Shown piece after piece: positions 17,120 to 57,622 of a stretch of 64,000 nucleotides of DNA (positions are counted from its first letter, which is position 1; the number at the start of each line of letters is the position of its first letter). The position numbers and the translations under genes were made by a program. The notes beneath the pieces are model-generated. The model saw only the letters and a list, made by a program, of their open reading frames with translations, was not told where the DNA came from and did not search any database. Origin of the DNA: Symbiodinium sp. CCMP2592 (taxonomy: Eukaryota > Sar > Dinophyceae > Suessiales > Symbiodiniaceae); contig CAJNDT010006135.1 in assembly GCA_905221615.1 (NCBI GenBank), forward strand, positions 1,073,501 through 1,137,500, in the 5' to 3' direction.

Positions 17120-17343
17120 CAGTACTCTCCGAAGACAGACGGCAGGTCGAGGCATTTGAACATGCCTGGCATATGGGAGTTTCCGGAAAATGCGGGACCC
17201 TAATATAATACACAAAAAAAAAGTAGGACCCTACCTATCAGGACCCCAGAATAAGGTACCCCTAATTTCCGGAAACTCCCATATCACACCCTGTTCAGGA
17301 GAAGCGCCCTGCTTCAATTGATCGACATTCGGCTTTGTATGGG
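17120..17343 (-). CDS. two exons joined across a family F element intron
   Basis: Exon 17343-17290 (AHTKPNVDQLKQGASPEQ) ends CAGG|GTGTG. The intron 17289-17166 (124 bp, GT-AG) is essentially one F element. The exon resumes at 17165 with GMFKCLDLPSVFGEYW and leaves by TACTG|GTGAGG at 17120. Phase 1 is kept across the junction. A further exon upstream at 17481-17421 reads APGMRNKCLMLLSRVLQ. Family unknown. Confidence 0.7.
17166..17289. repeat. TIR element, family F (~105 bp), acting as an intron
   Basis: Ends TATGGGAGTTTCCGAAAAT and complement, inner GGATCCTTATTATA. Other copies: 15050-15150, 20768-20876, 26478-26584, 27025-27130, 31227-31336, 54631-54738, 63572-63760 (composite). This copy lies between two in-phase exons. 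Confidence 0.88.
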
Positions 17344-18659
17344 CTAATAGGAAGGGTTTACGGGTTAGGGGTTGGGGTCTCGGGTATAGGGTTCAGAAGT
17401 TTAGGGCTTCTGACGAACTTAGTCCCGCAACTGCAGTACACGACTGAGAAGCATGAGGCATTTGTTACGCATGCCTGGGGCCTCTAGGGACTCCCGATAA
17501 ACCTTAAACCTATAGGTCCTAAACCCGAAGTCCTTAGCCATTTAAACCCTAAGCCCGAGACCTGAAACCTATATGTCCCAGACCCCTAGTCCCTAAGTCC
17601 TTAACCATAAACCCTAAATATAGTCTCCATTGTAATTCCTTTTTTGGTTTAACCACTATTACATTAAGGATCCTAAAAGGTAACCCCAAAAAGGAACTAC
17701 AATGGATACTATGGGTACATCTTAAATCTTAAACCTATATAGGTCCTAGACCCTAAGCCCTCCACTCGCAGCCCTAAGCCCTTCAACATGAAATCCCAAA
17801 CATTAAGCCCTACCTGGACCCTAAGGAACCTACCTTTTTAGGGTTCCCTCATATGATTTCTTTATATAAGTCCTCAAAAAAGTAGTTGCCTTGAAACCCT
17901 ACTATTTGGGTGCTTGGACCCTTAGGGAACGTTATCTAGTCTACAAGCAAAGATTAGAACAGCCATCCCACATCTCTGATACCCTAGCTCCCTAAAGCCG
18001 ATTATAAGCATCAACCCTAACACCGAACACTGTGTAAGTCTGAAACACTATCTAGACCTAAGAGTAACCTAGGAATAAAAAGGGTGCCCTTTTTGGTTTC
18101 AAGGGGTTTATAAGGGAACCTAAGCCTCAAAAAAGGGAATAAGGGCCTACTCTGGGTCCTAGTTAATCAACCCTGATAAACCTCAGCCCCAGATGCTATA
18201 TATGGAACCCTACACCCAAAAAGGAGACCACGCCAAATAATGACAACCCTGAGCACGAATCCCGAAACCCTATAAGCCCTAAGCCCCTACACCCGGAACC
18301 CCCAAACTCTCTAGAACCCTTCACGAAAGCCTTAAAGAAACCGTTCAAGGAGGTTTTCAAACGAAGCCTGAAGGGAACCCTGACAAGCTCTTTGTATACA
18401 AGCCTTACAGGAACCCTTTAAAACGAACCCTTTAAAGGGTCCCTTATAGAACCCCTCTCAAGAAACCCTTTACAGCTAACCCGTATAGGAACTCCGTAAA
18501 CCCTAGACCCTCATTTCAAACTAAACCCTTAGAAAGAACCCTTTACAGGATCCCTTATAGAAACCCTCTAAAGGCACCCTTTACAGCCAACCCTTATAAA
18601 CCATTGTAGGAACTCCGTAAACCCTAAACGCTAAACGCTAAGTAACCCGGAGAAAGAAC

Positions 18660-18742
18660 CCCCAAAAGAGGCCCGGCCTTCGTGGCCCAGGCTGTTTGGG
18701 TGCGCGCTGTCGCGGCTGCCACCTTCCGGCCAATGGCCCTTC
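18660..18742 (-). CDS. exon, Ala/Thr-rich
   Basis: Acceptor AACCTCAG|GA, then GRAIGRKVAAATARTQTAWA, TKAGPLLG. Possible GT donor at the 3' edge. The stretch 17482-18659 is element B, L, T-type and degenerate CCCTAAA repeats. Confidence 0.6.
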
Positions 18743-18901
18743 CTGAGGTTTAGGGTGTATTTTTATTTTATTTTTTTTTGGGGGGGGACTTACGGACTTT
18801 CCTCAGGTTTTAGGGTTTTCAATAGGATCCTTATTAAAAGGACCCCCAAAAATACGGTACCCCTATCTTTCGGAAACTCCCAGATGGGGGGACTTAAGGA
18901 T

Positions 18902-19304
18902 TTACTTGGGCTCAAGAGCCGGATCTAGGCTTTTAGGGTGCAGGTGCATCGCAGATTCTTATTTGAAGGCTCATTGGACTTAGTAAGTAAGGTATAAGTA
19001 GGTTATAGTTAGGATAGCCCCACTTAGGGGACTTATAACCCCGATTATAACCTACTTACTCCCATGATCCTCTAAGTAGTGGATTTCCAAAAGCCCTTGA
19101 AGTTATGTAGGACGCATTTTCGAGCAGCTTATGTGCTGTAGGTGAGAGGAAGAAAAAACATGCACCTTGTTTGAGTTCCATTCGACTTCAGGGCGCGACT
19201 TAGTAAATGGGGTGATAATTAGGGTAACTATACTTACAACCCCACTTAAGGTACTTATAACCTTACTTACTAAGTCCCAGGATCCTCCAAGTAACGATCA
19301 TAAC
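18902..19304 (-). CDS. 3' part of an unknown gene with E-element introns
   Basis: Exon 19185-19070 reads CRMELKQGACFFFLSPTAHK then LLENASYITSRAFGNPLL. Intron 19069-18958 (112 bp, GA-AG) is one E element. Terminal exon 18957-18902 reads ESAMHLHPKSLDPALEPK and stops TAA. A 17-nt upstream exon 19304-19288 (VMIV) before the E element at 19287-19186 keeps phase but is tentative. I first took 19165-19136 (GT...AG, 30 nt) as an intron; the frame is open through it, so it is coding. Confidence 0.68.
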
Positions 19305-19675
19305 CTACTATCTTGCAAGGTTTTGGATTTCAGACTGTAATTTGGTGTTTAGGGCTTCGGGAGCGACTTGAGGCCTACCATGTGGGTGCATGGACCGGTT
19401 CCTTCAGGAACAAACGGTTGATGATAGAAATCCTGCATTCCCCACAATAAGGAATATACCATAATTTCCAGATATTCCCTACTATCGGTAATGCAGTGCA
19501 GGATTTATATCATCAACCGAATGACTTAAGGTTCAATTATGTGAGTTAAGGTATAGGGTGCCGAATATAGGGGCACTAAGAACCAGACTAGGGTTTTGGG
19601 GCCTATTGTACTTTACTTAGGATAAAGTAGGGGTATATATTTAGGCCCCTATAGTAAGGTGCTTACTTTCAAGGA

Positions 19676-19853: not shown

Positions 19854-19979
19854 AGGACATACGGTTGATGATGAAAATCCAGCATTGTTCGTAATAAGGA
19901 GTATATCACAATTTTCATAGTTTAGGCTCCTTAAGGTAATGCAGGATATATATATATATACATACATATGTATATATCA

Positions 19980-20443: not shown

Positions 20444-23400
20444 CTATTTGCGAGCCGGACGTGGCCGTTTGCTGGGCTGAGTAGGCTCCTTCTTCTGAAG
20501 CTTCTTCTTGTTCAAGAGGCGCACGATGTCCTGCCCGACTTCTTCAGGCCCTAAACCCTAAACCCTAAGCCCTACCCTAAGGCTCCTAGCGGGGTCATGG
20601 GCTTTCTGGAGGAGGGTTTCGGCTTTGCGGGCTAGGGTTCGGGACCTCACTCCAAGGGTCCAGGAGACTTAGGGTAAACCCTAAACCCTACACCCTAAAC
20701 CAGGGAGAAACACAAAAACGGTTAAGTTTCCAGAAGACCATGAGGCTGAATCTTCGTGTACACTTCGTGGGAGTTTCCGAAAATTAGGGGTACCTGATTT
20801 TGGGGTCCCGTATAATAAGGATCCTACTATTTAGGGTACTATATGACGGTCCCCTCTTTTCGGAAGCTCCCATAGTAGGATGAATACTGTCATAGTATAA
20901 GGGTGTACCAGGACCCCCAAGAGCCCTATATATAATAGATCCCCTATGGCCCTTAACAGTGGGTATTTGGGGCAAATTGGAGGGTAGTTGGAGGGTCTAG
21001 GTAGAGGCCCAAGTTTTCCATGTCCTTTGGTCCTTCAGGAAGAGACCAAGGAGAAAAACACAAAGGGTGTTAAACTTCAGACTTGTAATTACCAGTAAAG
21101 ACAGCTGCAAAACCTTGAGCTGGAAAAGTCGTGCATTGGGCAACTATAATGCTGAGTCCTCATTTCCGAAAACCTTGGCAATAGAAGCTGGGCTTTCCCC
21201 GCTTGCATCTTTCTTGAGCTTGTTTGCACCTTCGTCCAACAATAGCTGCACCATTTCCGGGTGCGCATGGCGAACAGCTTTGAAGAGAGGCGTCCACCCG
21301 TTTGCGTCGACCTAGGGCCCCAAAAAAGCACATCAGCAAAAAATACGACAGAGATATCCCATATAAAAGCTCCCTATAATGAAGCCCAATAAGGTAGGGA
21401 TATCCCTATGAAATGATTATGATTACGTGCTTTTTGGTCCCTCCCTCCAAGTAAGCCCTAAACCCTAAACCCCATAGATCCCTTTCAGGAACCCTATAGA
21501 TCCCTTTAAGGAGCCCAATAGAAACTTTTTGGGTCCCGAACGACCTTGTCCACATCCGCCCGGGCGGCGAGCAATATGCGGGCAACGTCTGGACGACCCC
21601 GCGCAGCAGCTCGATGAAGGGCACCCGAGCCCCTTGAAGTATCCTGGGTTTAGGGCTTAGGGTGTAGGGTCCTAGTCCATGGTTGGGATATCATTAACGC
21701 TTTAAGTTTCTACCTATATTCTCCATTGTAGCTCCTTTTTTTGGTCAGGCATTTTTATGGTTAGGATCCTATAATAGAGATTTTGGTTAGCCAAAAAAAG
21801 GAACTACAATGGAGACTATAGGTATTCCTTCATGAGTTTAAATACTTGGAGGGTCGGGGGACTTAGTAACTGGTTATTTTAAGGACTTATAAGTACCATA
21901 ACCCCAATTAGGGTCCCTTTTAGGGTACTTATAAGTCTACTTACTACCTACTTACTAAGTCCCCCGACCCTCCAAGTACCCATACACATTCAAAGCTTTG
22001 CCCAACTATGACAAGGCATCCCCGAGCTCTTGCTTGCACGACTGATTCACCTCCGCACCTGCCTCAAGTTTAGGGTTTAGGGTTTGGGGTTTAGGGTTTA
22101 GGGTTTGGGGTTTGGGGTTTGGGGTTTAGGGTTTAGGGTTTGGGGTTTAGGGTTTGGGGTTTAGGGTTTAGGGTTTGGGGTTTAGGGTTTAGGGTTTAGG
22201 GTTTAGGGTTTAGGGTTTAGGGAATTTATGAGGGACCTATGGGGTTTAGCATAGGGCCCTTGCCTCAAGAAGCATCTTCACCAGATCTGTGCAACCCCTC
22301 TCGCATGCGTAGACCAGGGCCGGCTTGCCCATATTGTCCGTCTTCTCCACGCTTGCACGGGCCTTCAACAAAAGATCGGCAACCTTGGCGCATCTAGCCA
22401 CCTCTGCCTCAGATCCTGCAGTTGTGCAGGATAGAGCTTGCAAGAGGGGGCTTCTGCCACCGCGATTCGCAATATTAACGTCTGCACGTGATTCCAGCAG
22501 CAGCTGTGCGCACTCCACCTGCCCCGCATGCTCAAGTGCAGCTGCAAGGCACCTTCGCACTGAAAGGGTGCCTTTCGTCCCTAAACTACCCTACCTCTAG
22601 TCTCCGTTGTAGTTCCGTTTTTCAGTTATCCAGTCTTATGGTTAGGATCCTATAATAGAAATTTTGGTTAACCAAAAAAGGAACTACAATGGAGACTATA
22701 AGTAAACTCTAAACCCCAAACCCTGGAACTCCTATGGGGCCAAGGCACAAAGGGGTGTTGTTGTCTTTCGTGGTCCGATCCTTGTTTGCACCGGCCTCCA
22801 GTAGCAAACGGGCGACATCGACATGGCCTTAGTTCTCGGTACTACCTGGCAGGGTTACATTTAAGGGTTGCGTTGCAGGGTTCTTTAAGGGTTACTATAA
22901 GGGTGTTGGGGGGTTGGAGTTTCGGGTTTACTCACCAATTCCGAAGTACCTACATAGCAAAATGTAATTAGGGTCGCCATATGTGGAGGGACTATGCTGA
23001 CTTTTGGAAAGCATCTCCCATGTGTAGGGTACCTACTCTGTAGATAACCGATGCTAATCATAAAACAGAAAACCACGGTTGATGATATAAATCCTGCATC
23101 ATCCATAATAAGGAATATAGGAATTATGGTATATTCCTTATTTTGGGTAATGCAAGATTTCTATCATCAACCGTAGGTACCCTGAAAACGGGGTAGGGAA
23201 GCGCCTTTCCCCGTTTGTCGGACCCTCGGGTGCTGGTACAACACTGAACTCCTTTTCCACTGTGCGGCTATGAAGAGGAAGCTTTAAGCTATCGGTTGAT
23301 CATATAAATCCTGCATTACCTTATGGACCCTAAGCTATGGGAATTATGGGATATTCGGATATTCCTTAATATGGGTGATGCCGGATTTATATCATCAACC

Positions 23401-26400
23401 GTATTGACTTCGAAAAAAAGCCAGAAACGCTAAATGCTTACATACACAAACCACATAAATCCCATTAATGCATTGTGCCAGTATTGCTCTAAGGGTTCGC
23501 TATCACATTTTTTCAAAACTAACAAACCCCAACACCTTGCTCTGACTATAAAGGCCAGTACTCTGAAAACCTAGGGGCCGTGTTCAACAGCTTGATGCAG
23601 TGCTGAAGCTTTCTGCCCCGGTGGATCAGGTTCTTGAGGTCGGTTTAAGCAGTCCTCGCAGCTTAAAAGTGTAGGATTTGGGATTTAGGGTTTAGTGTAG
23701 GATTTAGGGTTTATAGGGTGTAGGGTTTAGGAATTGGGGTTCACAGGGTGTGCGTTTGTGCGAGTGTGTGTGTGTGTGTGTGTGTGTGTATCGGTGTGTC
23801 TGCGCGTCGGAGAGTGTGTGTGTGTGTGTGTGTGTTTGTGCAGGGTGTGCGGTTCAGGGCTTAGCATCTTCCATAGGAACTAATTGGGCATTAGGGATCT
23901 AAGGAATCGATTGCTATAGGCGGTCTATTCGGGATTTAGGCTTCCCCAAAGGGTCATACCCTATCCCCTTGCTTGGGTGCCTGTGTACTCTTCTAAATAT
24001 ATGGGTAGCTGTCAGATTAAAATTAGGGTCCCTTTTGGGGTACCCTAAATAATAGTTGCCGTACTATAATCTATACCGAACTTAGAACCCTAGCAAAAAA
24101 TAAAATTTTAGCTGTTTCTTAGGGGTTATACTAACCAAAAAATAAAAATGATTTCTGAAAACCACTAAGTAATAAGGACCCAAAAGCGACCATAATTTCG
24201 ACAAGCGCCCATACAAGAGGTTCTAGCCATGAAACGAAGCACCTTAACCCTGTGGGTAGGGTCTTTGGGTATGCATTTTTAAGCAGTCCTCGACCACCGA
24301 GATATTACCTGGGCTGGTCTTGCTGGCTCCGCTTCTTCTCAAAAAAAGAATGCTCGATGGGAAGAAAGCATAATAGAGGAGATTGAAATTAGAATGTTTA
24401 GGTCTCTTGCTCAAAAGTCCACATCATAGTGACACTATGCTGTATTGTACTGTATACTATACTATATGATACTGTGCTTTGCTAATCTTGAAATATGCTC
24501 TACTCTTCTACATACCATGCCCTCTAGATCCCAGTTTCAACCACTACGGCACTTCTATCATACAAACAAGGATGACAAACTATACTATGCTAATCTCGGA
24601 AACCTTCAAATTTAAATACCACCCGTCAATGTACCTGCATATAGCATTGTAATTCTGCGCAAGCCTGAAGAGGGGTTCCTCTCTCGGTGCTTTACGGCAA
24701 AAGTATATGCAGTATATGCTACCAAAGGCATTTCGACCCGTAGCGTTAGAAGAAATCAAGATGGGAGCTTCACGTCGGGAGCCTTTTCTTGCGCTGGAAC
24801 CCTACCTATAGTCTCCATTGTAGTTCCTTTTTTTGGTTGACCAAAGTCTATCATAGGATCCTAACCATAAAGCGTGGATAACCGAAAAAAGGAACTACAA
24901 GGGAGACTATAGGTAAACTCTACTAGACCTAAGAGTAACCTAGGAATAAAAAGGGTGCCCTTTTTGGTTTAAATGGGGTTAGAAGGGAACCTTAAAAAGG
25001 GGAATAAGGGCCTACTCTGGGTCCTAGCCTAAACAAGGAGCCAGTATTACCCGGACCACCAACAAGGGGGCACCCACGGGTCCAAGTGGTGGGCTGAGCC
25101 TTCAGACTTCGAATAGGGTTTAGGGGTTTAAGGGTTTAGAGTTTTAGGTTTTGGGTTTTTGGGTTTTGGGTTTATGGGTTTAAGTTAAAGGGTTAGGGGT
25201 TTAGGGTTTGGGGGTTTGGGTTTTAGGGTTTAAGGTTTGGAGATTTTTGTCTCCAACTTTACCGTAGCCGTAGCCCCAAACCCTACAAAATAATAGGTTT
25301 CGGCCTCTTGGTGATGGGTTTTATCACGGTTATATCAGTATAAGCCTGAAAACAGCAGGTTATTGGATAAGCAGGTATAATATGAAGGAGCCCTAGTGGT
25401 ATTCGGTCCGGTCGCCCTCATGGATGATCTCTATGGGTTCTATGATCTCGGGGCCTTAACAATTAGAAAAAGGTTTACGGGCTTGTTTCGGCACAGACTT
25501 AATGCTGAACCCTATGTAAACGGTTCGTAACTAATGAGCATATACCCTCCCGACTGCTGACATACAGAACTGCTATCCTAAACCTATAACCCAAAGGGTC
25601 CAAGTATCATCCTGGTATATACTTATAGGGCATTTTGGGGGTCTAAGTATGTCCCATGATGATACTTGGACCCTTTGGGTAAGGTCCTGTGGACAACCGG
25701 AAACCGCTGGAAACAATGAACCCGAAACCCTAAACCCCTAAACCCTAAACCCCTAAACCCCTAACCCCTAAACCCCTAAACCCCAACACCCCTAAACCCC
25801 TAAACCCCTAAACCCCTAAACCCCTAAACCCCTAAACAACTAAACCCTAAACCCCTAAACCCCTAAACCCCTAAACCCCTAAACCCCTAAACCCATAAAC
25901 CCTAAACCCCTAAAAAAACCCCTAAACCCCTAAACCCCTAAACCCCTAACCCCAAACCCCTAAACCCTAAACCCCTAACCCCTAAACCCCCCCCCCTAAA
26001 CCCTAAACCCTAAACCCCTAAACCCCCCTAACCCCTAAACCCTAAACCCTAAACCCCTAACCCCTAAACCCTAACCCCCCTAAACCCCTAAACCCTAAAC
26101 CCTAAAACCCTAACCCCCTAACCCTAAACCCTAAACCCCTAACCCCTAAACCCCTAAACCCTAACCCCTAACCCCCTAAACCCTAAACCCCTAAACCCTA
26201 AACCCCTAAACCCCTAACCCCTAAACCCCTAAACCCTAAACCCTAAAACCCTAAAACCCTAAACCCCTAAACCCCTAAACCCCTAAACCCCTAAACCCTA
26301 AACCCCTAAACCCTTAAACCCTAAACCCCTAAACCCTAAACCCCTAAACCCTAAACCCCTAAACCCTAAACCCTAAACCCCTAAACCCTAAACCCGAAGA

Positions 26401-29242
26401 TCAAAACTTCCGGCCCGGTCGCCCTTCCGAGCAGCTTGGATGAGCTCATCCTGGGGTTCCGGGTTCAGGAAGATGATATGGGAGTTTCCGAAAATAGGAG
26501 TGCCTTAGTTAGGGGTCGTTATAATAAGGATCCTATTACTTAGGGTACTACATTATAGGGTCCCTTAGTTTCGGAAACTCCCATATAATCACAGGGGAAA
26601 AGGAGGGACCCTTAATAAGGACCCCTAGGTATATACCGCTATTATATACCCATTATATAGCTCATCCTGGGTTCTTCTTCAGGAATGTATCCCTAAGGGG
26701 CCATGTACTCATCTAGGGTTCCTTTAAGGGTTCCTTTCAGGGTCTACTATATGGGTTCTATAGGGGGTTCAGGAAGGTGATATAACCCAGAACTTCCAAA
26801 ATCCCTTAATTAAGGAATATACCTTAAATCATATTAGGGATCCTACTATAATTTAAGGCATATTCCCTAATTAAGGGATTTTGGAAGGTCTGGGTAAGTT
26901 ACCATAGAAGAGATTAACGCAAATCAAAGTATTCCCTCATGACGGAACCAGAAAAGCTGCCCTAAAACCTAATACTCTGAACCCTAAACCCCGAACTCTA
27001 ACCCTTAACTAAACCCCAAACCCTATGTGCGAGTTTCCGAAAATAGGGGACCCTAACATAGTACCCCAAATAAAAGGATCCGTATTGTCAGGGCCTCAAA
27101 AACAAGTTACACCGAATTTTGGGAAACTCTTAAACCCGAAACCCTCAACCATTTATAGAACCCTTATAGATCCCTTATAGATCCCTTTAAGGAACCCTAG
27201 GATAACTGTAATTCCTTAAAAAGGGAAACCCTTATAGATCCCTTCAAGGTTAAGGGATCCCTTTAAAAGAACCCTTAAGGGATCTCTTTGAAGGATCCCT
27301 TTAAAGGAACCCAAAAGGGATGCCTTTTAAAGAACCCTTAAGGGATCCCTTTGAAGGATCCCTTTCAAGGAACCCTTAAAGGATCCCTGTAAAGGAACCC
27401 CCAAAAAAATCCTGAACAAAAAAGAGCCCAGCATCGATCTGGGCCGTGCTCGCGGTCGCGAAAGGTACGAGCACCAGGGTCAAATCGAGAGGAGGCTCCT
27501 TGGACCCATACCCTGGGGATCAACATAGCCCAAGAATCTTATTTGGGCCCCTATCTCTAGGTATCAAAACAGCCCAACAGCCTTATGTGGTATGGACTTT
27601 GGGCCCAAAAGCCTTAATATATGAGCCCGTAAATCCCTCGGGGTATAGTATATACTTCGGCGCTGAGGTACTTATTTAGAGGCCCCTGTAAGGCCTAAGC
27701 ACATACTATCTTGGCTGACTTCTGAATCTGAACCCCTCCTAGATTGGAGAACTAAGGGCCCTCAACCCCTAAGCCGAGGAAGCTTGGATGAGTTCTGAAC
27801 CATTCCTAAAAGGTAAACTTCTAGCCTCCTTCATATCGTCAATAGAGAAACCCAAACAGTTAAAGTCCTAAGAGCCAACCAGAACGCCAAGGCTCCAGGA
27901 ACGCGTCATCGCTTTGTACCTGCTTTTTAGGGTTCCTTTAAAGGGAGCTACAGTCGAAGCAAAAAGTTGGAAACCCGATAGCCTCAATCCCTAAGAGTAA
28001 AGCACAGGGGATCCCAGCACTATTTGGCCTTAATCCGGTTTCCAACTTTTTAGAGTTTGCTGTATAAGGAACCAGCAGGGCTCCATTAAAGGGAACTCTC
28101 AGGGACTCCTCAAGTGCTTTCTAGGGTCCAGAAAGTCTAGGTTTTGGGTTTGGGGTCTACCAGGACCCCCCAAGTACCCTTGAAAGGGCTCTGATATTTC
28201 TCATTAAGAGGTAATTAGGGACTACTATAAAAGGGTAGTTGGGTTTTGGGTTTAGGGTGTAAGGTTTATAACCCAAAGGGTCATCATGGGACATACTTAG
28301 ACCCCCAAAATGCCCTATAAGTATATACCAGGATGATACTTGGACCCTTTGGGTAAAGCTAAGGTGTATCCTAAACCCTAAACCCCTAAATCCCTAAACC
28401 CTAAACCCCTAACCCCTAAACCCCTAAACCCTAAACCCTAAACCCTAAACCCCTAAACCCTAAACCCTAAACCCCTAAACCCTAAACCCTAAAGGTTAAG
28501 GGCTCTTTCGGCTGCTTTGTATGTGCCAGGGCCCCTCAAGTGCCCTTTAAAATGGAGCCCGGTGGTCCCTTCATACGGTTGATGATATAAATCCTGGGGT
28601 TCCTTTAAAGGGATCTATACCCAGACCCCCGGGAGGATCTAGAAAGTAGATCCCCTTATTTGGGGCCCTATACTACTAAGGGTACTTTATAGGAACCCCC
28701 ATTAAGGGATCTACTTTTTGGATCCTCCCGGGGGTCTGGGTAGGGGGTACCTTTAAGGGGCCCCTTCAAGGGATCTATAGGGGGTTTAGGGTTTAGGGTT
28801 GATGATATAAACCCTACATGACCCATAATAAGGAATATACCATAATTCCCATAGATTAGGGTCCTTGAGGTAATGGAGGATTCATATCATCAACCGTAGT
28901 GGGTGTTTGGGGTATACTACAGCTTCGTTTGGCGGGTCTAGGTGCTTCTAGAGTTTCGGTTGCAGGGTTTGGACTTTTGTTATGACGCCTTAGAGCCTTG
29001 CTCAGAAGGTGAAAGACTAGAACCCTAACATACCTGAACAAAAAAATGCGTGTAAATGCAGCCACAGGTGCAGCGGAACCCTCCTTCAGCAATCGTTGCT
29101 TGAATCTCAACTGCCCGCAAAGCGTTTGCAAATGCCTCTTTAACACATATCCGGGGCATTTGTCTGCATTGGCCAACTTTTGTAAATCCTCCTGTGTGAA
29201 CTCAGCAAGCAAATCGCCCGACGCTCGATAGACGCGTAGCAT
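20444..29242 (-). CDS. ubiquitin-like domain + ankyrin-repeat protein, ~12+ exons
   Basis: Exons: 29242-29075 (ATG; MLRVYRASGDLLAEF ... RFKQRLLKEGS), 27919-27896, 27498-27436 (PLDLTLVLVPFATASTAQI), 26450-~26402 (DELIQAARKGDRAG), a candidate at ~24690-24635 (RGTPLQACAEL), 24337-24289, 23654-23579 (ASALHQAVEHG), 22827-22741, 22541-22264, 22062-22034, 21632-21545, 21311-21159, 20530-20444 (TAG). Phases agree at every junction from 24337 to the stop. The first ~85 residues form a ubiquitin-like fold; then come about seven ankyrin repeats (LLLEAGANK, LLLESRADVN, MLLEAGAEVN, ILLAARADVD, LLLDEGANK) and a Lys/Arg-rich tail KRPRPARK. The role is probably as a cytosolic or nuclear scaffold or in ubiquitin-linked binding; this is inferred from domains only. 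Introns are GC-AG or GA-AG except one GT-AG. The part between 26400 and 24340 is not fully resolved. Confidence 0.85.
20531..21158 (-). other. GA-AG intron of the ankyrin gene holding F and M elements
   Basis: Donor AATGAG|GACTC, acceptor GGGCAG|GACATC; AGGAC is shared by both edges. It contains element F (20768-20876), element M (20573-20669) and telomere-like runs. Splicing gives GNED|IVRLLN, which completes the last ankyrin helix. Confidence 0.8.
21633..22033 (-). other. GC-AG intron of the ankyrin gene with elements B and C
   Basis: Donor TGCAA|GCAAGAG, acceptor ACTTCAAG|GGGCTC. It contains a complete B (21712-21822) and a complete C (21843-21978) side by side. Splicing joins VNQSCK to GSGALHRAA, the expected ankyrin spacing. 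Confidence 0.78.
22063..22263 (-). other. GC-AG intron made mostly of telomere repeats
   Basis: Donor CTTGAG|GCAAGG and acceptor ACTTGAG|GCAGG; CTTGAGGCA is present at both edges. About 155 of the 201 bp are TTTAGGG/TTTGGGG units. Splicing gives KMLLE|AGAEVNQ, a textbook ankyrin end. Confidence 0.85.
22069..22223. repeat. TTTAGGG/TTTGGGG array inside a coding gene
   Basis: About 22 units of TTTAGGG with regularly interspersed TTTGGGG variants. It is the filler of the intron 22263-22063. Confidence 0.95.
22542..22740 (-). other. GC-AG intron consisting of a B element
   Basis: Donor TGCCTTG|GCCCC, acceptor GCCTTGCAG|CTGC, with TGCCTTG at both edges. The B element 22593-22701 fills it. Splicing restores TPLCLAALEHAGQVE. 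Confidence 0.82.
23655..24288 (-). other. GA-AG intron with a 15-bp exon duplication
   Basis: Donor GTCGAG|GACTGC and acceptor GCGAG|GACTGC; CGAGGACTGCTTAAA stands at both ends. It contains a GT microsatellite and a Q element carrying an R insert. Confidence 0.75.
23767..23845. repeat. (GT)n microsatellite
   Basis: Two GT runs separated by TATCGGTGTGTCTGCGCG. It is inside the intron 24288-23655. Confidence 0.9.
25588..25680. repeat. TIR element, family J (~92 bp)
   Basis: Ends ACCCAAAGGGTCCAAGTATC and complement. A second copy at 28264-28357 is in the opposite orientation. Both are inside the UBL-ankyrin gene. Confidence 0.82.
25725..26395. repeat. 670-bp CCCTAAA/CCCCTAAA array
   Basis: About 90 units, mixing CCCTAAA with CCCCTAAA and rarer CCCAAA or CCCCCTAAA. 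It lies inside the UBL-ankyrin gene region, with exons on both sides, so it is interstitial rather than a chromosome end. Confidence 0.95.
26781..26895. repeat. TIR element, family O (~112 bp)
   Basis: Ends ACCCAGACCTTCCAAAATCC and complement, inner TTAATTAAGGAATATACC. Other copies: 52800-52911 (inside the reverse-transcriptase remnant), 59429-59516, and half copies at 34520-34563 and 40440-40500, both joined to G elements. Confidence 0.85.
27170..27400. repeat. GGTTCC-module cluster (GGATCCCTTTAAAGGAACCC units)
   Basis: About ten imperfect copies of GATCCCTTTAAAGGAACCC, the short module found singly all over the window (for example 4738-4815, 10650-10695, 13128-13190, 44060-44165). No coding frame. 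Confidence 0.8.
27953..28070. repeat. TIR element, family S (~115 bp)
   Basis: Ends with AGTTGGAAACC / GGTTTCCAACTTT and inner GGCCAAATAGTGCTGGGA. Better copies are at 37892-38009 and 44466-44583. Confidence 0.8.
28378..28492. repeat. CCCTAAA telomere-type array
   Basis: About 15 units of CCCTAAA/CCCCTAAA, next to a J element in the first intron of the UBL-ankyrin gene. Confidence 0.92.
28574..28897. repeat. composite: A element opened by V element and GGTTCC/telomere module
   Basis: An A arm (28574-28597) is followed by a GGTTCC module, a complete V hairpin (28619-28743; ends CCCAGACCCCCGGGAGGATC; second copy 32819-32938), another GGTTCC module and TTTAGGG. Then the A element starts again with GGTTGATGATATAAA and completes at 28897. 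The first 19 bp of A are duplicated around the insertion. Confidence 0.8.
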
Positions 29243-29298
29243 TGCCGCTTGAACCGGTGTAGACAGCTGATGCTAAACTTCTAAACACAATCATGAGG

Positions 29299-30255
29299 CT
29301 ATAAGATGCTGCAGAACATGGCAGTGCCTATGAGGCATGTGAAGCCCCAACAACAGCTGCGGTGAACAGTAGTATGCAGTCCATAGCCATGCAAACTCAT
29401 TCCCTAAGGCTCCATGTACCCTTATAGTAGATACTTAGGCCTTAAAGTACCTATATAGGGACTACTTTAAGGCCGAAGTATCTACTATAAGGGTACATGG
29501 AGCCTTAGGGATTGTGGGCTTGCTTGGGAAAGCTCTGCACAGCACCTCTCGGACCCGATGGGTCCATGTACCCAACTACTACTTGGAGGGTCGGGGGACT
29601 TAGTAACTATAAGGGGTTCCTTTAGGGTTCCTTTAAAGGGATCTATAGGGATTCTATATAAGGGTATAGGGTTTAGGGTTTAGGGGGACTTAGTAACTGG
29701 CTATTGTAAGGACTTATAAGTACCATAACCCCGATTAGGGTCCCTTTTAGGGTACTTATAAGTCTACTTACTACCTACTTACTAAGTCCCCCGACCCTCC
29801 AAGTAGATACTTCAGCCTCCAAGTACCTGTACAGCGACTACTTTAAGGCCTAAGCATGTACTATTTGGGTACATGGACCCTTCGGGTGATACATGCCTGA
29901 ACATTCAATTCAAAACCTTAAACATAAGCGTTTCAAGCTGCTACGCCCGAAGCCCCGAACCACTAAACCCTACATGCGAAACCCAACAAACCCTGCGGCC
30001 CAGAATCCTCTATATACTTTGGCCTTAAAGGAGTCCTTATATATGTACTAATGTATAAACTATTTGGGCGCATGGACCCTTAAACCCTAAACCCCCATCG
30101 AACCCCTATAGAGCCCTTTTATAGTAACCCTTATAGTAACCCTTAGAGGAACCCTTGAAGGAACCCTACCTTAGGGTCAGACCACCCCCGTGCAACATCC
30201 GTCAGAAGCCCAGGTCTGACCAGTTGGCTGATCGTATCATCTGGTGGTTCCATCT
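29299..30255 (-). CDS. 3' part of an unknown gene, three exons
   Basis: Exon 30255-30170 (EMEPPDDTISQLVRPGLLTD, VARGWSDPK; donor CCTAAG|GTAGGG), exon 29545-29504 (VLCRAFPSKPTIPK), exon 29403-29299 (GMSLHGYGLHTTVHRSCCWG, FTCLIGTAMFCSIL, TAG). All phases match. Intron 29503-29404 is exactly one H element used as GC-AG. The long intron 30169-29546 holds the Ha/C nest and telomere-like bases. The stop lies only 56 bp above the ATG of the UBL-ankyrin gene. Family unknown; the last exon is Cys-rich. Confidence 0.65.
29561..29885. repeat. nest: C element inside an Ha element, itself opened by a telomere module
   Basis: An Ha arm (GGGTCCATGTACCC) stops at 29576. C begins at 29580 and runs to 29804; Ha resumes and ends at 29885. 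Inside C, after GGGGGACTTAGTAACT, a GGTTCC/TTTAGGG module of about 90 bp is inserted, after which GGGGGACTTAGTAACT is repeated. This gives three layers of insertion in order. Confidence 0.82.
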
Positions 30256-30501: not shown

Positions 30502-31806
30502 CTAAGACCTAAATCCTCCTGGCAAGGTCTCTCTGAAAGCACGGCAGTGTACAGTACACTTTCGCTTTTCGGAGTTTCGGGTATGGGTCCGACGGTTTTA
30601 CGGTTCTTCTTCGGGATTCCTTCTTGGGATCTATGAGGGACTAGGGGTTGTAGGTTTAGGGACTCCTTTAAAAGGGATCTATAAGGGATTGGGTGAGGAG
30701 TATTTAATGGAACCCTTAAAGCAGCTTCAAACAACGAAGCCGTAAACGGTGGGTCCTCAGAGCCTTAGGGTTCGCCACTCTAAACCCTAAACGATAACCC
30801 CTAAACTCTAAACCCTAAACCTTAAACTCTAAACCCTAACCCCTAGTCCCCTAATCCCTAGGACACTTAACCCTAATCCCTAAACCGTAAACCCTAAGAC
30901 ACTAAACGCTAAGACACTAAACCCTGAACGCCTAAACCCCTGAACCCTAAACCCCTAAACCTCCAATTAAACTCTAAGCCCCAAGCGCTTAAACACCCTA
31001 AACCTTAGCCACAGTGTTTATGGCCAGGATCGGATCCCTGGCGCCATCTTGGAGGAAATCGATGTAGTGGTCTACCTGCCGAGTGCTGACTTAGGATTTA
31101 GGGCTTACCAGGACCCCCCCAAGTACCCGAATTATTCCCTCATGACGGAACCCCCAAAAGCTGCCCTAAACCCTAGACTCTGAACCCTAAGCCCCGAACT
31201 CAACCCTAAACTAAACCCCAAACCTCATGTGGGAGTTTCCGAAAATTAGGGGATCCTAATATAGTACCCTAAATAGTAGGATCCTTATTATAAGGACCCC
31301 AAAAGAAGGTACCCCTAATTTGCGGAAACTCCCATGTAGCGTTTAGGGCGTAGGGTTCAGGGGCTTATGGTTTACAGGGGTGGTAGTTTATACGGTTTCG
31401 GATGTAGAGTTCAGGGCTCTCATAGGAAAGCCCAAGCCCTGCTCCTCTACATGGGTATGTCATTAAGGTAAAGGATAGGGGTACCTTATTTGGGGGTCCT
31501 TCTAAGAAGTATCCTACTGCTTAGGGGCTGTAAGGGCTTCCGGATTTAGGGTTCAGGGAAAGCACTGAACCACGAAAACCCACAAGCCCTGAACACCCAA
31601 AGTCCTAAATTCAGATCCTAGACGGCCCTGGGCCCTCTACCTCAAACCTTAAACCCGCTAAAACCCCCAATCTGCAAATCTTGAATAAAAGAAGCCCATT
31701 GAAACTGTTACACAACCCTTTCATCATGGGAACCCGTGCAACTCCCCAAAGCAACTCCAAAGCAACTGACGAACATCCTGAACCGCGAAACCCAACCTGG
31801 CTTTGT

Positions 31807-35336: not shown

Positions 35337-35455
35337 AACGAAATGAACCCTGAAAGGGTCAGCGGTTCATATACCTTATAGGGATTCATAGTACTCGTGT
35401 AATGTAAGGGCCCAGGGCGCTTACTTTTAAGGGTGATTTGTTCTTTAAGGTTAGG
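35337..35455. repeat. dispersed element AA (~110 bp)
   Basis: Shared blocks GACGAAATGAACCCTGAAAGG, a TTCATATACCTTATAGG(G)TTCATAG core and CTTTAAGGACC-like end. Related stretches: 1853-1960, 4058-4125, 40033-40140, 54080-54200, 55928-56035. It is more diverged than the hairpin families. Confidence 0.62.
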
Positions 35456-35711
35456 GCTTAGGGAACCAGAAAAACTATGTCATGTAAAGGCATCAGTAAC
35501 TTTTGAATGCATCCGCCTAAACCCTATGCAAGCCCTAAACCTATGCAGACGCCATGCTATAGAGATCGTAGTACAAAGAATTGAACAGGCTTGGGGGGGC
35601 ACCCAACATGGTTTAACATAGGCTTGTTGGAAACATCAAGTCTTCAGGACCATAAGCAGGTATTGCAGCTGGTAAGTCAAACGTCTGTATTGAACACTGA
35701 ATTCTGCTTTG

Positions 35712-45397: not shown

Positions 45398-46602
45398 TCA
45401 ATCGCGCGCTTGAAACTGCATCTGCGCTGCTAGCTGCTTTTCGTGAAGCTGGTGCCGCTGTTCCAGCTCCAGTTCGTGGAGCTTCTGCTGTCGCGCTAGG
45501 TCTTGCACGTACAGCTGCTCCTGCGTCTTTAGCTTCGGCTTCTGCTGTTCCCCATGCCGCTGAGCTAGCTCCGCAAGCTTCTGCTGTTCCTCTGGCTGCT
45601 GTGCTAGCTCCGCTTCGCGATACGACTGCTCTGACGTCGACTTAAACCTTAGACAAAGTGTTACCTTGACTCACAAATAACTCTTCCCTTTGACTGGCCT
45701 GACCCTCCTTAAACTTAGGCCCAAAGTTACAAAAGCTAAACCCGAAACCCGACAACTCTAATCCCAAAACTCCAAAACCAATAAACCGTAAACCCAGAAC
45801 CTAAACCCTCAACCCCGAAGCCCTAAGCCCTAAATCCTAAAACCCCTAAACTTTAAGCCCTTATAGATCTCTTTAATGGAACCCTTCTAAATCCCTTTAC
45901 ACGAGAAACCCTGAATCCCTAAGCTCCGACGACCTCCAAACACTTCTCCCTAGAGCTCCAGTTACCTAAAGTGTACCTATAGTCTCCATTGTAGTTCAGT
46001 GGTAGGCTGAGAGTCAGAAGAAGCAGCAGCACCACCAACCGTAAGCTCAACGGTCGCCGTGTCGGACGGCACCTTGATCTCCGCCTTCGCAGTGGTAGGC
46101 TGAGAGTCCGGAGAAGCAGCAGCACCACCAACCGTCCCTAAGGCTCCATGTACCCATATAGTAGGTACTTAGGCCTTCAAGGGCTCCCTATATGGGTACT
46201 TTATGGCCTAAGTACCGACTATATGGGTACATGGAACCTTTGAGCGTAAGCTCAACGGTCGGACGTGGAGCGGTGTGCGCAGACGGTTCCGGGTCCGGCG
46301 GGTCCCGAGGGTTTGGGGGCGCCGGCTGTTTGCCCATGGCTGCAAACCTTTTTTTGGCTAGGCAATTTTATGGTGAGGATCCTATAATAAAGATCTTGGT
46401 TAACCAAAAAAAGGAACTACAATGGACACCATAGGTAGGTTACTGATAGGTTAGCAACCTACTATTTAGGTAACGGGAGCCTGAGGTATCTGAATATGGC
46501 CAGCCTATACCAACCTAATGATACCCTCATAAGCCAGTCTTCTGAAACCTTTACACAAGAGGCGTAAAGAAGGCTGTAAAAGCTCACATAACTTCCGCTA
46601 CC
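45398..46602 (-). CDS. Pro/Thr-rich and coiled-coil protein, four in-phase exons
   Basis: Exons 46602-46481 (SGSYVSFYSLLYASCVKVSE ... WYRLAIFRYLR), 46347-46238 (FAAMGKQPAPPNPRDPPDP, PRPTVELTLK), 46137-45998 (two copies of a TVGGAAASxDSQPTT unit around AKAEIKVPSDTATVEL), 45640-45398 (Glu/Gln-rich coiled coil, EEQQKLAELAQRHGEQQ ... EQRHQLHEKQLAAQ, TGA). All phases match. Introns: 46480-46348 GC-AG, 46237-46138 GT-AG (one H element), 45997-45641 GA-AG. Hydrophobic N-terminal part, disordered middle and helical tail suggest a membrane-linked or scaffold protein (inference). An upstream exon candidate is 46877-46795 (GGFGNFRTFPPSKAISAPW). On the plus strand the same region gives an Ala-rich shadow frame. 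Confidence 0.8.
45976..46437. repeat. B element split into two halves around two exons
   Basis: CCTATAGTCTCCATTGTAG plus TTC (45976-45997) is the left end of B. The remainder, from CTTTTTTTGG to CCATAGG, is at about 46350-46437. The halves are complementary with nothing missing. Between them lie exons 46347-46238 and 46137-45998 and an H element. The left half supplies the GA donor of one intron and the right half the AG acceptor of another. Confidence 0.75.
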
Positions 46603-49992: not shown

Positions 49993-51419
49993 GGGGCCTT
50001 TCTTAGAATAGGGTTTTGTGGCCATTATACCGTAATTATACTAAGGAACCCCCAAAACAGTGTAGGTAATGATTTAAGCCCCTATACTACATCGCCACGA
50101 ACGCGGAGCCTCGAGAGAATATAGCGCCAGGATCACCCTAAACCCTAAACCCTAAACCCTGCGCCAGGCTTAGGGGGCTGGAAGAAATTCATAAGGGTCC
50201 TAAGCTCCAACACACATATGGGTGGTTGTCGAAATTAGGATCCCTTTTTGGGTCCCCTAAATATTAGGCGTCGTATTATAATCGAGACCCCAAAAAGGGA
50301 CCCTAAGTTTGACAACCACCCATATGTTATAGCAAATTAGGAATATCGGTTTGGGTTCTTGTGTTAGGGGAGCACAATATGACTGTTTGGTACTTCTTGG
50401 AGGGTCGGGGGACTTAGTAACTGGTTATTTTAAGGACTTATAAGTACCATAACCCCAATTAGGGTCCTTTTTAGGGTACTTATAAGTCTACTTACTACCT
50501 ACTTACTAAGTCCCCCGACCCTCCAAGTTGGGTCTTTGGGGATAGGTTGAGGTCGAGAGCCCAACCCTTATAGGAACCCCGAAGCCCCAACAAGAACTCA
50601 CTCATTAGAACCCCCATATGCCTAGAACCTCCAAACCTTCAAACCCTGACCCTAGTCCTTGGGCCTTGGGAGGAACCCGTATAAGCCTAGAACTGCTAAC
50701 CCTAAATCCGAATATACGGGCCTTAATAATTAGAATAGGGCTTTCGGGCCAATTATACCATATTTAATAGTAAGGAACCCCAAAGCAGTATAGGTAGCTA
50801 TTCAGGCCCCGACATTAACTCTCGGGTCCTTTGGACCCTTAGGGCTCAAGAAATCCCAGGCTCAAAGGAACCTTCTGCCCAAAACCAAAGTTGACATTCA
50901 AGCGCAGCCTCCGATCTACAGCTAGAAAGCCGAAACTTAGGCCTACTTGTGGAGTATCCCGGGGAACTGAAAGTATAGTACATGGGGGGTTATATAGGGA
51001 TTATGGTACCCCGACAGAAAATTACTTATTATGTTCCTTAATTCCCTTATAGAACCCTTATAGATCCTTTCAAGGAACCCTTTGAGGAACCCTTAGTTAG
51101 GTTACCTACTCCACTACTAGGTAGTGCTTATAGGGCTGAAGTACCCAACTATCATATACACTCAAAAATAGTAACCTACATAACTACTATCCCAAACCCG
51201 AGTACCTAATTATTAGGCCCCTATGTTATAGAACCCTTATAGTAGGAACCCTAAACCTTATTGGGTCCTTTGGACCCTTGGATTAGGGCAAGATTCATCC
51301 CTAAAGCCCTAAACCCGGAACCCCAAACCCCTTTATAGAGCCCTTATAGATCCCTTTGAAGGAGCCCTTATATGGGTCCCTTTAAACGGACCATCTTGGG
51401 CTTAGGGCTTAAGGGTTGA

Positions 51420-54568: not shown

Positions 54569-55449
54569 CTTGAAGGCAACCAACACACACACACACACAC
54601 ACACACACACCACGGATAGCGCTGTTAAGACATGGAAGCTTCCGAAAATTAGGGGTACCTTGCTTTCAGGTCCTTATAATAAGGACCCTACTATTTAGGA
54701 TACTATATTAGGGTCCCCTGCTTTTGGAAACACCCACATAATGACAAACTGCCCGCAAGCCCTACACCCTAACCCAAATACGTGTTCTAGACTTAGAGGC
54801 TCGAAGACCCCTATAGAGTGTTCGAGCCTTAAACCCTTTTGGGACTCATGTCGTCTGTAGCCCAAAAGCTCCATGTACCCATATAGTCATAGTAGGTACT
54901 TAGGCCTTAAAGTAACCATACAGGGACCCCTTTAAGGCCTAAGTACCTGCTATATGGGTACATGGAGCCTCAGGGTAGGGTACCCCAAACCCAAAACCCC
55001 AACACCCAAGATCCCTAACCCTGAAACTCTAGAACCTTAGTCCCTTCAGGGCTCAGTTGGCCCTTCAAGTCATGAAAAATGACCTCCCAGTAAAAAATCC
55101 TTATACGCCCGCAAACCCTACGAAACCCTTATCCCAAAGGGTCGTAAGTGCTGTTATGGGGGATACTTCCCACATCATAATAGCAATTCCTAATACAGAA
55201 ACCCTGCATTCTACAATAAAGGTACTTTGGACCCTTTGGGTTAGAAGACCTACAGTATAGAACTCCCCCAAGACATGAAGGAGCATGAAACCCCGGAGCT
55301 ACGGTAAAGCGCTTAGTTAAACCTTAAACCAGACCCTTAACCTATGCTGAGCTTAGGCCAGTGGCAGAAATTGTAATTTTCGCCATTTCTTAGGGATTAT
55401 AGCAACCAAAAATGAAAAAATCTTTCTAAGTACCTCTGAGCTAGACCCC

Positions 55450-55545
55450 TGAGCTACGAGAAAGGGCTCCTCGCGCCGCTTGCGGCTGACGCCGGGGAGG
55501 CACTGTGGACGCTTCCCGCTGTTGCCTCAGACGGCTTTCCCTAAG
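55450..55545 (-). CDS. exon, basic Gln/Arg-rich
   Basis: After TCCTTAG|G the minus strand reads ESRLRQQREASTVPPRRQPQ then AARGALS. Single-copy island. 3' edge approximate. The remainder of 55550-56280 holds elements H, AA and N. Confidence 0.58.
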
Positions 55546-56288
55546 GACGAAAATCCAAGGGTAAAAAGAGGGACCCTTATAAGGACCCCTACGTATATAC
55601 CCTTAATATAGCTATTATATACCCATTATATAGCCCATTATAGGGTTTAAGCCCTATGAGGCTCCGTGTGCCTATATGGTAGATACTTAGGCCTTAAACT
55701 ACCTATATAGGGACCATCTAAGGCCGAAGTATCTACTATAAAGGTACATGGAGCCTTTGGGAAGGGTTTCTGTGATTTTGGGGTTTTGGGGGTATCTTGA
55801 GGACGGAGTGAGCCCTGACGGAATGTCGGGTTTAAAGTTTAGGGGGTTTAGGGGGTCTAGTGTTTAAGGGGTTTAGGGTTTAGGATTTTGGGATCCAAAG
55901 GGAGTTTTGTGTTCCCCGGTAATATCCTTTCCTCGAAAATGAAGCCTAACAGGGTTTAATGCCACATAGGGGTTCATAGTACATAGGGGTATAGGGTCCT
56001 CACTTTTATGGGTCATTTGGTGCTTAAGGTTGCTCAGGCTATGAAGATAACACCAAATTTACCGTTGTGTGGAGTACTTTCCAAAACCATATAATGGTGA
56101 GTCCTAACATAGAAACCCGCAAATTCTACTATTGAGGTGCCTAGGACCCTTTGGGTAAGGAATGATGAGGGTTGTAGGGTTCAGGATGTAAGCCTTACGG
56201 ATGTTTAGGGTATGGGGTTCTAATGCTCACCTGAATAAGATTTCGGGGTTATGGCTGTAAGGAAGCCAGACTATGAAAGGCTTCTGGG

Positions 56289-56455
56289 CTAGCTTGAGCC
56301 ATCTCTGCCTTTAGGGTCCACTGGTCTCTGTATACACTTTGTGTGCTGAATATATGAGCCCCAAAGGGTACTTATCCAGCCCTTATAGTGTGTGCGCAGC
56401 TGCTGCGCAGGATTACCCAGAACTACACGAGCCCCGATACGCACATCGCGAAGCC
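56289..56455 (-). CDS. terminal exon, unknown
   Basis: Acceptor GCCTATTAAG|GG, then LRDVRIGARVVLGNPAQQLR, THYKGWISTLWGSYIQHTK, PVDPKGRDGSS, TAG. 2+165 nt. A competing frame through the acceptor (VGPVLQRKQVCLLRASR) is open for 45 codons, so the entry point is not certain. Confidence 0.6.
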
Positions 56456-56741
56456 CTTAATAGGCAAACCTGCTTCCTCTGTAGAACAGGGCCCACGAAC
56501 CCCAAACCAAAAAGCCCTAAGCCCCAACCGTCGACACCGGCTTGCAAAACCTACTTCACTGTAGGGTCTTGCAGAATCCTATATAAGGGTTTCTAAGAGG
56601 AACTTGCAAAAAGTTGGGGGAAGGGTAGTTTCAGGAGTGGTTCTCAAAACTATGGTCCCTTTTCGGGTACCTATCATAGTACGGCACCTATTATTTAGGG
56701 TATCCAATTAGGGACCATAATTTTGACAACCACCCAGGTAG

Positions 56742-57055
56742 ACTCTAGACAAGCCTGAGGACGAAACCCTGAACCCTCGACTGGAGACATTCGGTTGATG
56801 ATATAAATCCTAGGGTTCCTTTCAAGGGATCTATAGGGGTACCTAAAAGCAGTCCCTTTAAGGGATCTTAGGGTTTCAGGGTTCAGGGTTTAAGGTTTAG
56901 GTTGATGATATAAATCCTGCATGACCCACAATAAGGAATATACCATAATTCCCATATATTCCTTATTATGGGTAATGCAGGATTTATATCATCAACCGTT
57001 CAACCCATGACAAGGGCTTGCAAGGATTCTGGTCTGCCATTTCGAAAGACCGAAT
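56742..57055 (-). CDS. two exons around a composite A element
   Basis: Exon 57055-57001 (FGLSKWQTRILASPCHGLN) ends AACG|GTTGATG, i.e. the A element end is the GT donor. After the element, CTCCAG| leads into 56788-56742 (EGSGFRPQACLESTW). The A element (56794-56999) carries a GGTTCC/telomere module with its first 19 bp duplicated. Phase across the junction was not proven. Confidence 0.5.
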
Positions 57056-57437
57056 AGGCCTTAAGGCCCCAAATCTACCCTAATTCTCAGAAAGGGGTCA
57101 TGGACTTCCTGGGGGAAGGGTTTGGGCTTTGGGGGCTAGGTTTGGGATTTCACTACGAGGGTCCAGGAGCCTCAGGGTAGACCCTAAAGAACTCTAAACT
57201 CTGCAACTCGAAGCACTAAACACAAAACCCTAAGCCCGAAAAATGCAAAACCCGGGTCCAAGTAATCCTTATTTACAGTTTTGGTACCTAAAAAGGGCCT
57301 TAAAGTCCTATAATAGGGAGTACTTGGCCCCTCTGGGTGAACTCTAAAAAGTAGGTTGTTAATGTAAACCCTAATCTGGGATTTACAGGGACCCTACAAA
57401 AAAGTGGCTTCTGCTAGGTTAAGGTAAACCATGGATT

Positions 57438-57622
57438 CTAAAAGCCCCAGCAGCGCCCGCTTTTTGATTCACGCCGGCGCACTTGGGCAGCGACGAGCCC
57501 TAAGGGTCCATGTACTCATATAGTATGTACATTGGCCTTAAAGTAGTCTCTATATAGGTACATTGGGCCCAAAGTATATGCTATATGGGTACATGGACCC
57601 TTAGGGGAAAGCTCAGGAGGAG
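57438..57622 (-). CDS. two terminal exons joined across an Ha element
   Basis: Exon 57622-57599 (24 nt, after AACTTACAG|; PPELSPK) leaves by CTAAGG|GTCC. Intron 57598-57500 (99 bp, GT-AG) is the Ha element. Last exon 57499-57438 reads LVAAQVRRRESKSGRCWGF and stops TAG. Phase 1 is kept. Upstream exons unknown. Confidence 0.66.

What the first reader, a model, noticed from the sequence alone, without database searches (positions are those of the whole stretch)
17120..57622. Inverted-repeat elements are the introns: a multi-family introner system
Seen directly: several palindromic elements lie exactly between two minus-strand coding segments whose phase is restored when the element is removed (H: 29404-29503, 46138-46237; Ha: 57500-57598; E: 18958-19069; F: 17166-17289, 63559-63754; B: 22542-22740; C and L probable). 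The inverted-repeat ends carry the splice borders (AAG|GC or AAGG|GT ... CCTTAG|; CTTG|GA ... CTCCAAG|; AGAG|GA ... TTCAAG|). Known: introner elements, including ones with inverted repeats, are described in some algae and in dinoflagellates. Inference: at least six unrelated families here are or were active intron makers, so intron gain is not tied to one element type.
Basis: partly seen in the sequence, partly recalled or inferred. Interest (0 to 1): 0.9.

Follow-up and report, generated by a model that had tools for sequence, protein, structure and literature searches.

The report
Hairpin transposons, a few become introns
This dinoflagellate genome is strewn with short hairpin-shaped jumping elements; most are not introns, but one family found in the window appears to create introns in real genes when it lands on the sequence AGGT, a way of making introns already known in other algae.

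Summary
The palindromes are real and dense: 51 full-length ones in the window, 209 in 264 kb around it. They are MITE-like transposons with family-specific target duplications (2 bp; 3 bp for H; 4 bp for F). The genome is a dinoflagellate's.

The claim that they ARE the introns fails as a rule. No frame register stands out; 4 of 209 have coding sequence on both sides, against 153 of 4000 random points. B is an ankyrin-gene intron with a MITE inside it; H2 lies in an ORF-like insert within another MITE; H1, Ha, E and F2 lack coding on both sides; F1 is undecided.

The core idea is right for F. It is a whole intron in an ion-channel gene. Of 93 exact copies at GG targets I read 20: three are seamless junctions between coding stretches, one an FKBP gene whose protein aligns through the junction. 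Both splice sites come from the duplicated target: AG|GT-element-AG|GT. Two further repeat families make introns in another ion-channel gene and a kinase gene. Multi-family dinoflagellate introners are already in print. No transcript was seen.

The parts
17175..17280 (.). F (FAM8) element, the family shown elsewhere in the genome to make introns; this copy has TSD ATAT, not AGGT.
63658..63758 (.).
15053..15145 (.). F element, flanks ACAT/ATAT
20769..20871 (.). F element, flanks TCGT/ATAG (no TSD)
26480..26582 (.). F element, TSD ATAT
27029..27131 (.). F element, flanks ATGT/AAAC (no TSD)
31231..31333 (.). F element, TSD ATGT
54634..54735 (.). F element, TSD ACAT
29404..29503 (-). H (FAM2) element H1; no convincing coding on both sides
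46138..46237 (-).
45998..46346 (-). ORF-like insert (about 349 bp, holding H2) inside a FAM4 MITE
57500..57598 (-). H element Ha; no coding on both sides
22592..22704 (.). FAM4 palindromic MITE nested inside that intron; not the intron itself
50001..50096 (.). match to the repeat family that forms an intron in a kinase gene elsewhere (L046), E 1.8e-4
50718..50808 (.). second match to the L046 intron family, E 7.7e-4

Best explanation
The palindromes are non-autonomous DNA transposons (MITE-like hairpins, mostly about 100-125 bp) of many families, scattered without evident regard to genes. Each family duplicates its own kind of target. A copy becomes an intron only when target and element ends together offer splice sites. 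For F (GGGAGTTTCC...GGAAACTCCC, 4-bp target ANNT), insertion at AGGT gives exon-AG|GT-element-AG|GT-exon: donor GT from the left copy of the target, acceptor AG from the right copy, message unchanged after splicing. For the L092 family the GC donor comes from the 5-bp target duplication GCATC and the TAG acceptor from the element end. SHOWN: families, TSDs, nested insertions, exact in-frame position in homologous genes. INFERRED: that the spliceosome removes them, and movement by a transposase supplied in trans.
For: Density and families: 209 full palindromes in 264 kb, 15 families of 3 or more members. TSDs: identical 2-bp flanks in 31/43, 31/53, 12/17, 13/21 and 7/11 copies of FAM0, 1, 1b, 3, 4. 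H: 3 bp in 24/27 of copies close to H1, 30/107 of all local ones. F: 4 bp in 12/26; FAM6: 6/14. Nested empty sites: a FAM3 copy inside an H copy, a FAM6 copy inside a FAM3 copy. Introns: L093, F element = whole intron of an Ion_trans gene. L092, spliced peptide matches Ion_trans, E 3.8e-7, through the junction. L046, kinase intron. F at AGGT: 93 exact copies with GG on both sides. In all 20 fetched the next base is T, in 17/20 the base before is A. 3 of 20 have coding on both sides at 10 bits or more in the seamless register, 0 and 0 in the other two; random points 75/4000, binomial P 0.006. L108 is an FKBP, aligned without a gap at GLQYK^VLQEGSG (E 1.4e-12).
Against: No transcript was seen. 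Only 20 of 93 GG copies were read, and 17 of those lack strong coding on both sides. The seamless register is the best of the three in only 5 of 20, about chance; at 5 and 7 bits it does not stand out either (4,3,4 and 3,0,3). Against the 23 F copies of the 264 kb with other targets (0/23) Fisher p is only 0.09. The matched control of TG-target copies could not be fetched. L098 and L107 have no Pfam hit; L107 has none in the PDB, L098 was not searched there. The short L093 peptide alone gave no Pfam hit; its support is the Ion_trans match spanning the intron. The Pfam FKBP match starts after the junction; the PDB alignment spans it and has a 3-residue gap further on. The L046 family matches are weak (E 3.9e-7 to 7.7e-4).
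Confidence: 0.85

Rival explanations
1. One reading: all or most of the inverted-repeat families are the introns, with splice borders inside their repeat ends.
For: H ends read AAAG|GC/GT and CCTTAG|GG; with a 3-bp TSD such splicing would add 12 nt and keep the frame, as it would in H2. Three of the four palindromes with coding on both sides are H copies.
Against: No register stands out for any family. 0 of 27 close H copies reach 7 bits of coding on both sides. B is a nested passenger. Chance explains most in-frame junctions. The exonic H copy at C5273:1008917-1009030 has CCTTTG instead of CCTTAG on the coding strand.
Confidence: 0.08
2. All the elements are ordinary MITEs and none is spliced; copies in exons mark dying genes.
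For: 205 of 209 palindromes do not have coding on both sides; 17 of 20 GG-target F copies do not either.
Against: F in FKBP and Ion_trans genes restores conserved protein at the junction and has GT-AG borders; L092 and L046 likewise restore their domains.
Confidence: 0.07
3. The gene-resident F copies entered pre-existing introns and replaced nearly all of them.
For: MITEs do sit inside introns here (B), and F copies lie beside coding segments at A 216468 and 230745.
Against: In L093, L098, L107 and L108 nothing but element and duplicated target lies between the coding flanks.
Confidence: 0.05

Closest known systems
Introners of dinoflagellates (Roy et al. 2023, not held; [quoted passage not shown]
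   Same: several transposon-like families making introns in one dinoflagellate genome
   Different: I could not read that paper or compare its families; here the same families were also counted outside genes, where most copies lie
Introners of Symbiodinium microadriaticum (Gozashti et al. 2022, PMC9860276, section 7, Fig. 2B legend)
   Same: TIRs, 4-bp TSD, dinoflagellate host
   [quoted passage not shown] F borrows both. The L092 family follows the Symbiodinium scheme with a 5-bp TSD
Florenciella introners (same paper, Fig. 2E legend)
   Same: neither splice site carried by the element; both taken from the insertion site
   Different: a different lineage; no sequence comparison made
Amoebophrya introner elements (Farhat et al. 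2021, PMC7789003, abstract, sections 5, 11, 12 and passages)
   Same: inverted-repeat introns with short direct repeats at their borders, many families
   Different: Amoebophrya introner elements were defined among non-canonical introns (a similar layout in 1% and 15% of canonical ones); the F introns seen here are GT-AG
Inverted-repeat introner elements in Prorocentrum cordatum (PMC10666404, passages), Effrenium voratum (PMC11114475, one passage) and other Suessiales (PMC10522408, passages)
   Same: introns with inverted repeats near their ends in dinoflagellates
   Different: found there by a motif search within annotated introns, as far as the passages tell; families and targets not given in what I saw

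Membership tests
Introner (transposon-derived intron): F family | similar introns in unrelated genes | tested here: met
   Ion_trans gene, FKBP gene and two unnamed genes
Introner: F family | terminal inverted repeats and target-site duplication | tested here: met
   around the GG of the 20 copies read, 17 have A before and 20 have T after
Introner: F family | element ends coincide with in-frame exon junctions in conserved genes | tested here: met
   FKBP alignment without a gap at the junction; L093. Two conserved genes in all
Introner: F family | removed from mRNA | not testable with these tools
   no transcripts held
Introner: F family | absent from the same site in a relative or paralogue | not tested
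   no relatives held; the paralogue search did not complete
Introner: H family | element ends coincide with in-frame exon junctions | tested here: inconclusive
   0/27 close copies; 3 H copies with coding flanks in 264 kb, none in a recognised gene; 20 AGG-target copies found but not fetched
Introner: FAM0, FAM1, FAM3, FAM4, FAM5 | frame restored on removal more than by chance | tested here: not met
   register counts FAM0 19,19,15; FAM1 14,12,23; FAM3 9,12,15; FAM4 8,4,5; FAM5 15,16,8; smallest p 0.12. The test would miss a small fraction of intron copies, as it did for F
MITE | short, inverted repeats, TSD, high copy number | tested here: met
MITE | autonomous partner with a transposase and the same ends | not tested
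   transposase search PF13358 did not complete

The most novel reading that the evidence does not exclude
The hairpin MITEs are splice-neutral cargo and the landing site alone decides their fate: any family whose target duplication can supply AG|G on both sides (AGGT for F and FAM6, AGG for H through a GC donor) makes seamless introns, while like copies at other targets stay plain transposons. Because the elements are near-perfect palindromes, insertion orientation would hardly matter. One genome would then hold a natural experiment of about a hundred would-be introns against more than a thousand matched non-introns per family (93 and 1103 exact F copies).
Probability: 0.45. Interest if true: 0.6.

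Novelty: new member of a known kind. Interest (0 to 1): 0.45.

Why it matters
It suggests from sequence alone how a transposon becomes an intron: the same family, the same ends, and only the target differs. Counting copies at splice-competent and splice-incompetent targets could separate transposition bias from selection on new introns, a standing question about introners. It also corrects the idea that palindromes in this window are introns as such.

Tried and rejected
Rejected: (1) 'in-frame when removed' as proof; chance rates are too high. (2) Coding-flank enrichment around palindromes: none. (3) Paralogues of the exon at C5273:1008917 and of the H2 ORF: no match besides the loci themselves. 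(4) B as an element-intron: it is an intron with a nested MITE. (5) Polarella as the host by ice-binding genes: no hit, but the control rang nowhere, so nothing follows. (6) My first reading of F as having a 2-bp TSD was replaced by 4 bp after the 20 GG copies. (7) A 22-bp and a 23-bp direct repeat around two inserts were not explained.

Led nowhere: Pfam on eight long window ORFs gave one weak sub-threshold hit; searches for PF12774, PF00005 and PF13358 did not complete.

Counting notes: the 31 loci were chosen because domain matches were interrupted; they are not a random sample, and I did not prove each to be an intron. Of 93 GG copies I read the first 21 places less C57:81225, a near copy of C57:71223. 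TSD counts are of identical flanking bases with lenient end matching, so older copies dilute them. The listing was cut. The Markov palindrome control is a single sequence. The 27 H copies are 27 of the 39 other copies listed as closest to H1.
Full report
SOURCE. The window lies in a 1.098-Gb assembly of 5383 contigs, at C5273:1073501-1137500. I read 100 kb on each side and worked on 264 kb joined. Coordinates marked A are in that stretch: A = window + 100000 = C5273 position - 973500.

THE OBSERVATION. The inverted-repeat elements are real and denser than described. The window holds 51 full-length palindromes of 60 bp or more (5475 bp; one Markov control sequence gave 0). The 264 kb hold 209 (24,574 bp, 9.3%), median 109 bp. 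277 palindromic elements fall into 19 families of two or more plus 54 singletons. One member of each of 14 families was folded; most form hairpins over nearly their whole length.

THEY ARE TRANSPOSONS. Each family has its own target-site duplication. Identical 2-bp flanks, TA in most copies printed, occur in 31/43 FAM0, 31/53 FAM1, 12/17 FAM1b, 13/21 FAM3 and 7/11 FAM4 copies. H (FAM2; ends CCCWAAGGCTCC..GGAGCCTTWGGG) has 3 bp in 24 of 27 genome-wide copies close to H1 and in 30 of 107 local copies of all ages. F (FAM8) has 4 bp in 12/26 and FAM6 in 6/14, 17 of these 18 of the form ANNT. Nested insertions give clean empty sites: a FAM3 copy in an H copy (A 18438-18551) and a FAM6 copy in a FAM3 copy (A 215811-215917). 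H2 is a further case. It sits with TSD CGT in the second unit of a 93-bp repeat whose first unit is the empty site, and the whole ORF-like segment is an insert of about 349 bp inside a FAM4 element.

THEY ARE NOT, AS A RULE, INTRONS. (a) Frame register: for ten end anchors no register of removal stands out (H: 31, 34, 29 of 150 strand tests; FAM4 8, 4, 5 of 26; FAM1 14, 12, 23 of 84, the largest departure, p = 0.12). This test would miss a small fraction of introns. (b) Codon model from 12 kinase exons: 4 of 209 palindromes have at least 7 bits of coding on both sides against 153 of 4000 random points (odds ratio 0.49, p = 0.19). With splice dinucleotides required, 4 of 380 against 18 of 1520. 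(c) Chance: on the minus strand, with +-10 nt of freedom, 35% of random segments and 44% of palindromes show GN..AG borders and 20 or more open codons on both sides. (d) 31 loci where a kinase, kinesin or ion-channel domain match is interrupted (tables; fetched; read): a sensitive comparison with the 264 kb finds repeat matches in 4, one of them (L087) to stretches rich in telomere-like repeats.

B is a true intron of an ankyrin gene, but the FAM4 palindrome lies inside it, 36 and 50 bp from the borders. H2: see above. H1, Ha, E and F2 have at most 2.9 bits of coding on the weaker side. F1 scores 5.7 and 8.0 bits; random points reach 5 bits on both sides in 297 of 4000 cases. Its target is ATAT and its proposed borders lie outside the element, so it stays undecided. 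Four palindromes in the 264 kb have coding on both sides: H at A 35417, where removing element plus TC leaves one open exon; FAM0 at A 195644, where removing element plus CA does the same; H at A 214844; and H2. I found no named domain in them (FAM0 case: no Pfam hit; the others were not put to Pfam); the exon at A 35417 and the H2 ORF have no paralogue.

WHERE THE IDEA IS RIGHT. Three of the 31 loci have introns made of repeat elements. L093 (C5085, an Ion_trans gene) is interrupted by an F element with AGGT on both sides and nothing else..SAFWE|V.. with GAG|GTGGGAGTTTC..CCCCAG|GTGTGC. L092 (C2591, an Ion_trans gene) carries a 114-bp intron of a family with ends like CTAGGCTGTTCAG (three matches in the 264 kb). 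Its target GCATC is duplicated, the GC donor comes from the target copy and the TAG acceptor from the element; the spliced peptide matches Ion_trans through the junction (E 3.8e-7). L046 (C949, a kinase) carries a 116-bp intron of a third family with six weaker matches (E 3.9e-7 to 7.7e-4), two of them in the window (50001-50096, 50718-50808); it is trimmed at one end and flanked by a 23-bp direct repeat with one mismatch.

THE F TEST. If F makes introns through its target, copies at AGGT should be introns. Exact F elements with GG on both sides number 93 (0 in the reversed control), with TG 1103. In 20 GG copies (the first 21 places less one near-duplicate) the next base is T in 20/20 and the base before is A in 17/20, so the target is AGGT and the TSD 4 bp. 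Three of 20 have at least 10 bits of coding on both sides in the seamless register and none in the +1 or +2 register. At 7 bits the counts are 3, 0, 3, at 5 bits 4, 3, 4, and the seamless register is the best of three in only 5 of 20, so only the strong cases discriminate. Against random points (75/4000) P = 0.006; against the 23 F copies of the 264 kb (0/23) Fisher p = 0.09. L108 carries the case: joined at AG|GT the two exons encode an FKBP, aligned to solved FKBPs without a gap at GLQYK^VLQEGSG (E 1.4e-12). L107 and L098 are long in-frame junctions without a named domain (L107 also has no PDB match).

MECHANISM. Shown: the anatomy AG|GT-element-AG|GT and the unchanged protein. Inferred: splicing by the ordinary spliceosome (GT-AG borders), transposition with a 4-bp staggered cut. 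By this logic H, with a 3-bp target, would make GC-AG introns at AGG; 20 exact copies exist but I could not read their flanks.

COMPARISON. Gozashti et al. 2022 (passages; section 7 read) describe 548 introner families, up to 43 per genome. Some carry the 3' site and borrow the 5' site from a 4-bp TSD (Symbiodinium microadriaticum), some borrow both (Florenciella), some add 12 bp (Aureococcus). Lin 2024 (passages) reports from Roy et al. [quoted passage not shown] Farhat et al. 2021 (abstract, sections and passages) describe inverted-repeat introners in Amoebophrya; further dinoflagellates are covered in passages seen. The phenomenon is therefore known. I did not compare sequences with theirs, so whether the F, L092 and L046 families themselves are in print is open.

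Noticed in passing
e.g. A 176293-176405 (FAM3), window 24803-24915 (FAM4), A 174899-175015 (FAM7), A 97414-97529 (FAM8): Families with different ends (FAM3, FAM4, FAM7, FAM8) share a hairpin apex around TAGGATCCTA: GGATCC at the centre in 13/22, 9/15, 5/9 and 6/8 copies, expected about 0.03 per element; ten other families have none and FAM0 1/43. The 'unrelated' families may be mosaics.
   Followed up: partly
window 45998-46346: An ORF-like segment with a 93-bp tandem repeat is inserted inside a FAM4 MITE, with an AG before its ATG and a GA after its end, as if an exon had been captured by the MITE.
   Followed up: partly
L046 (C949:8860-9760) and A 214844-214953: Two inserts, a kinase intron and an H copy, are flanked by 23-bp and 22-bp imperfect direct repeats, far longer than the usual TSD.
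   Followed up: no
window 22542-22740 and flanks: The borders of the ankyrin-gene intron B share an 8-bp direct repeat, GTGCCTTG, at the end of the upstream exon and near the end of the intron.
   Followed up: no
window 62860-63496: Tandem array of five overlapping copies with period 112-117 bp; the first three are 97-100% alike.
   Followed up: no
window 25690-26440 and elsewhere: Long interstitial arrays of telomere-like CCCTAAA/TTTAGGG repeats in many places of the window; such repeats also lie inside an ion-channel intron (L087).
   Followed up: no
C2112, C5191, C1746, C3190, C86 (C2112 and C86 fetched as L060, L061): Four kinase loci with the same match length and stop pattern, plus a fifth close to them; the two read share one interruption at the same place and are nearly identical.
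   Followed up: no
C5273:1008917-1009030 (A 35417-35530): An H element splits an exon that has ordinary splice-site motifs at both ends (TTTCAG|TCC and GAC|GTAAGG); no acceptor lies at the element's end on the coding strand.
   Followed up: partly
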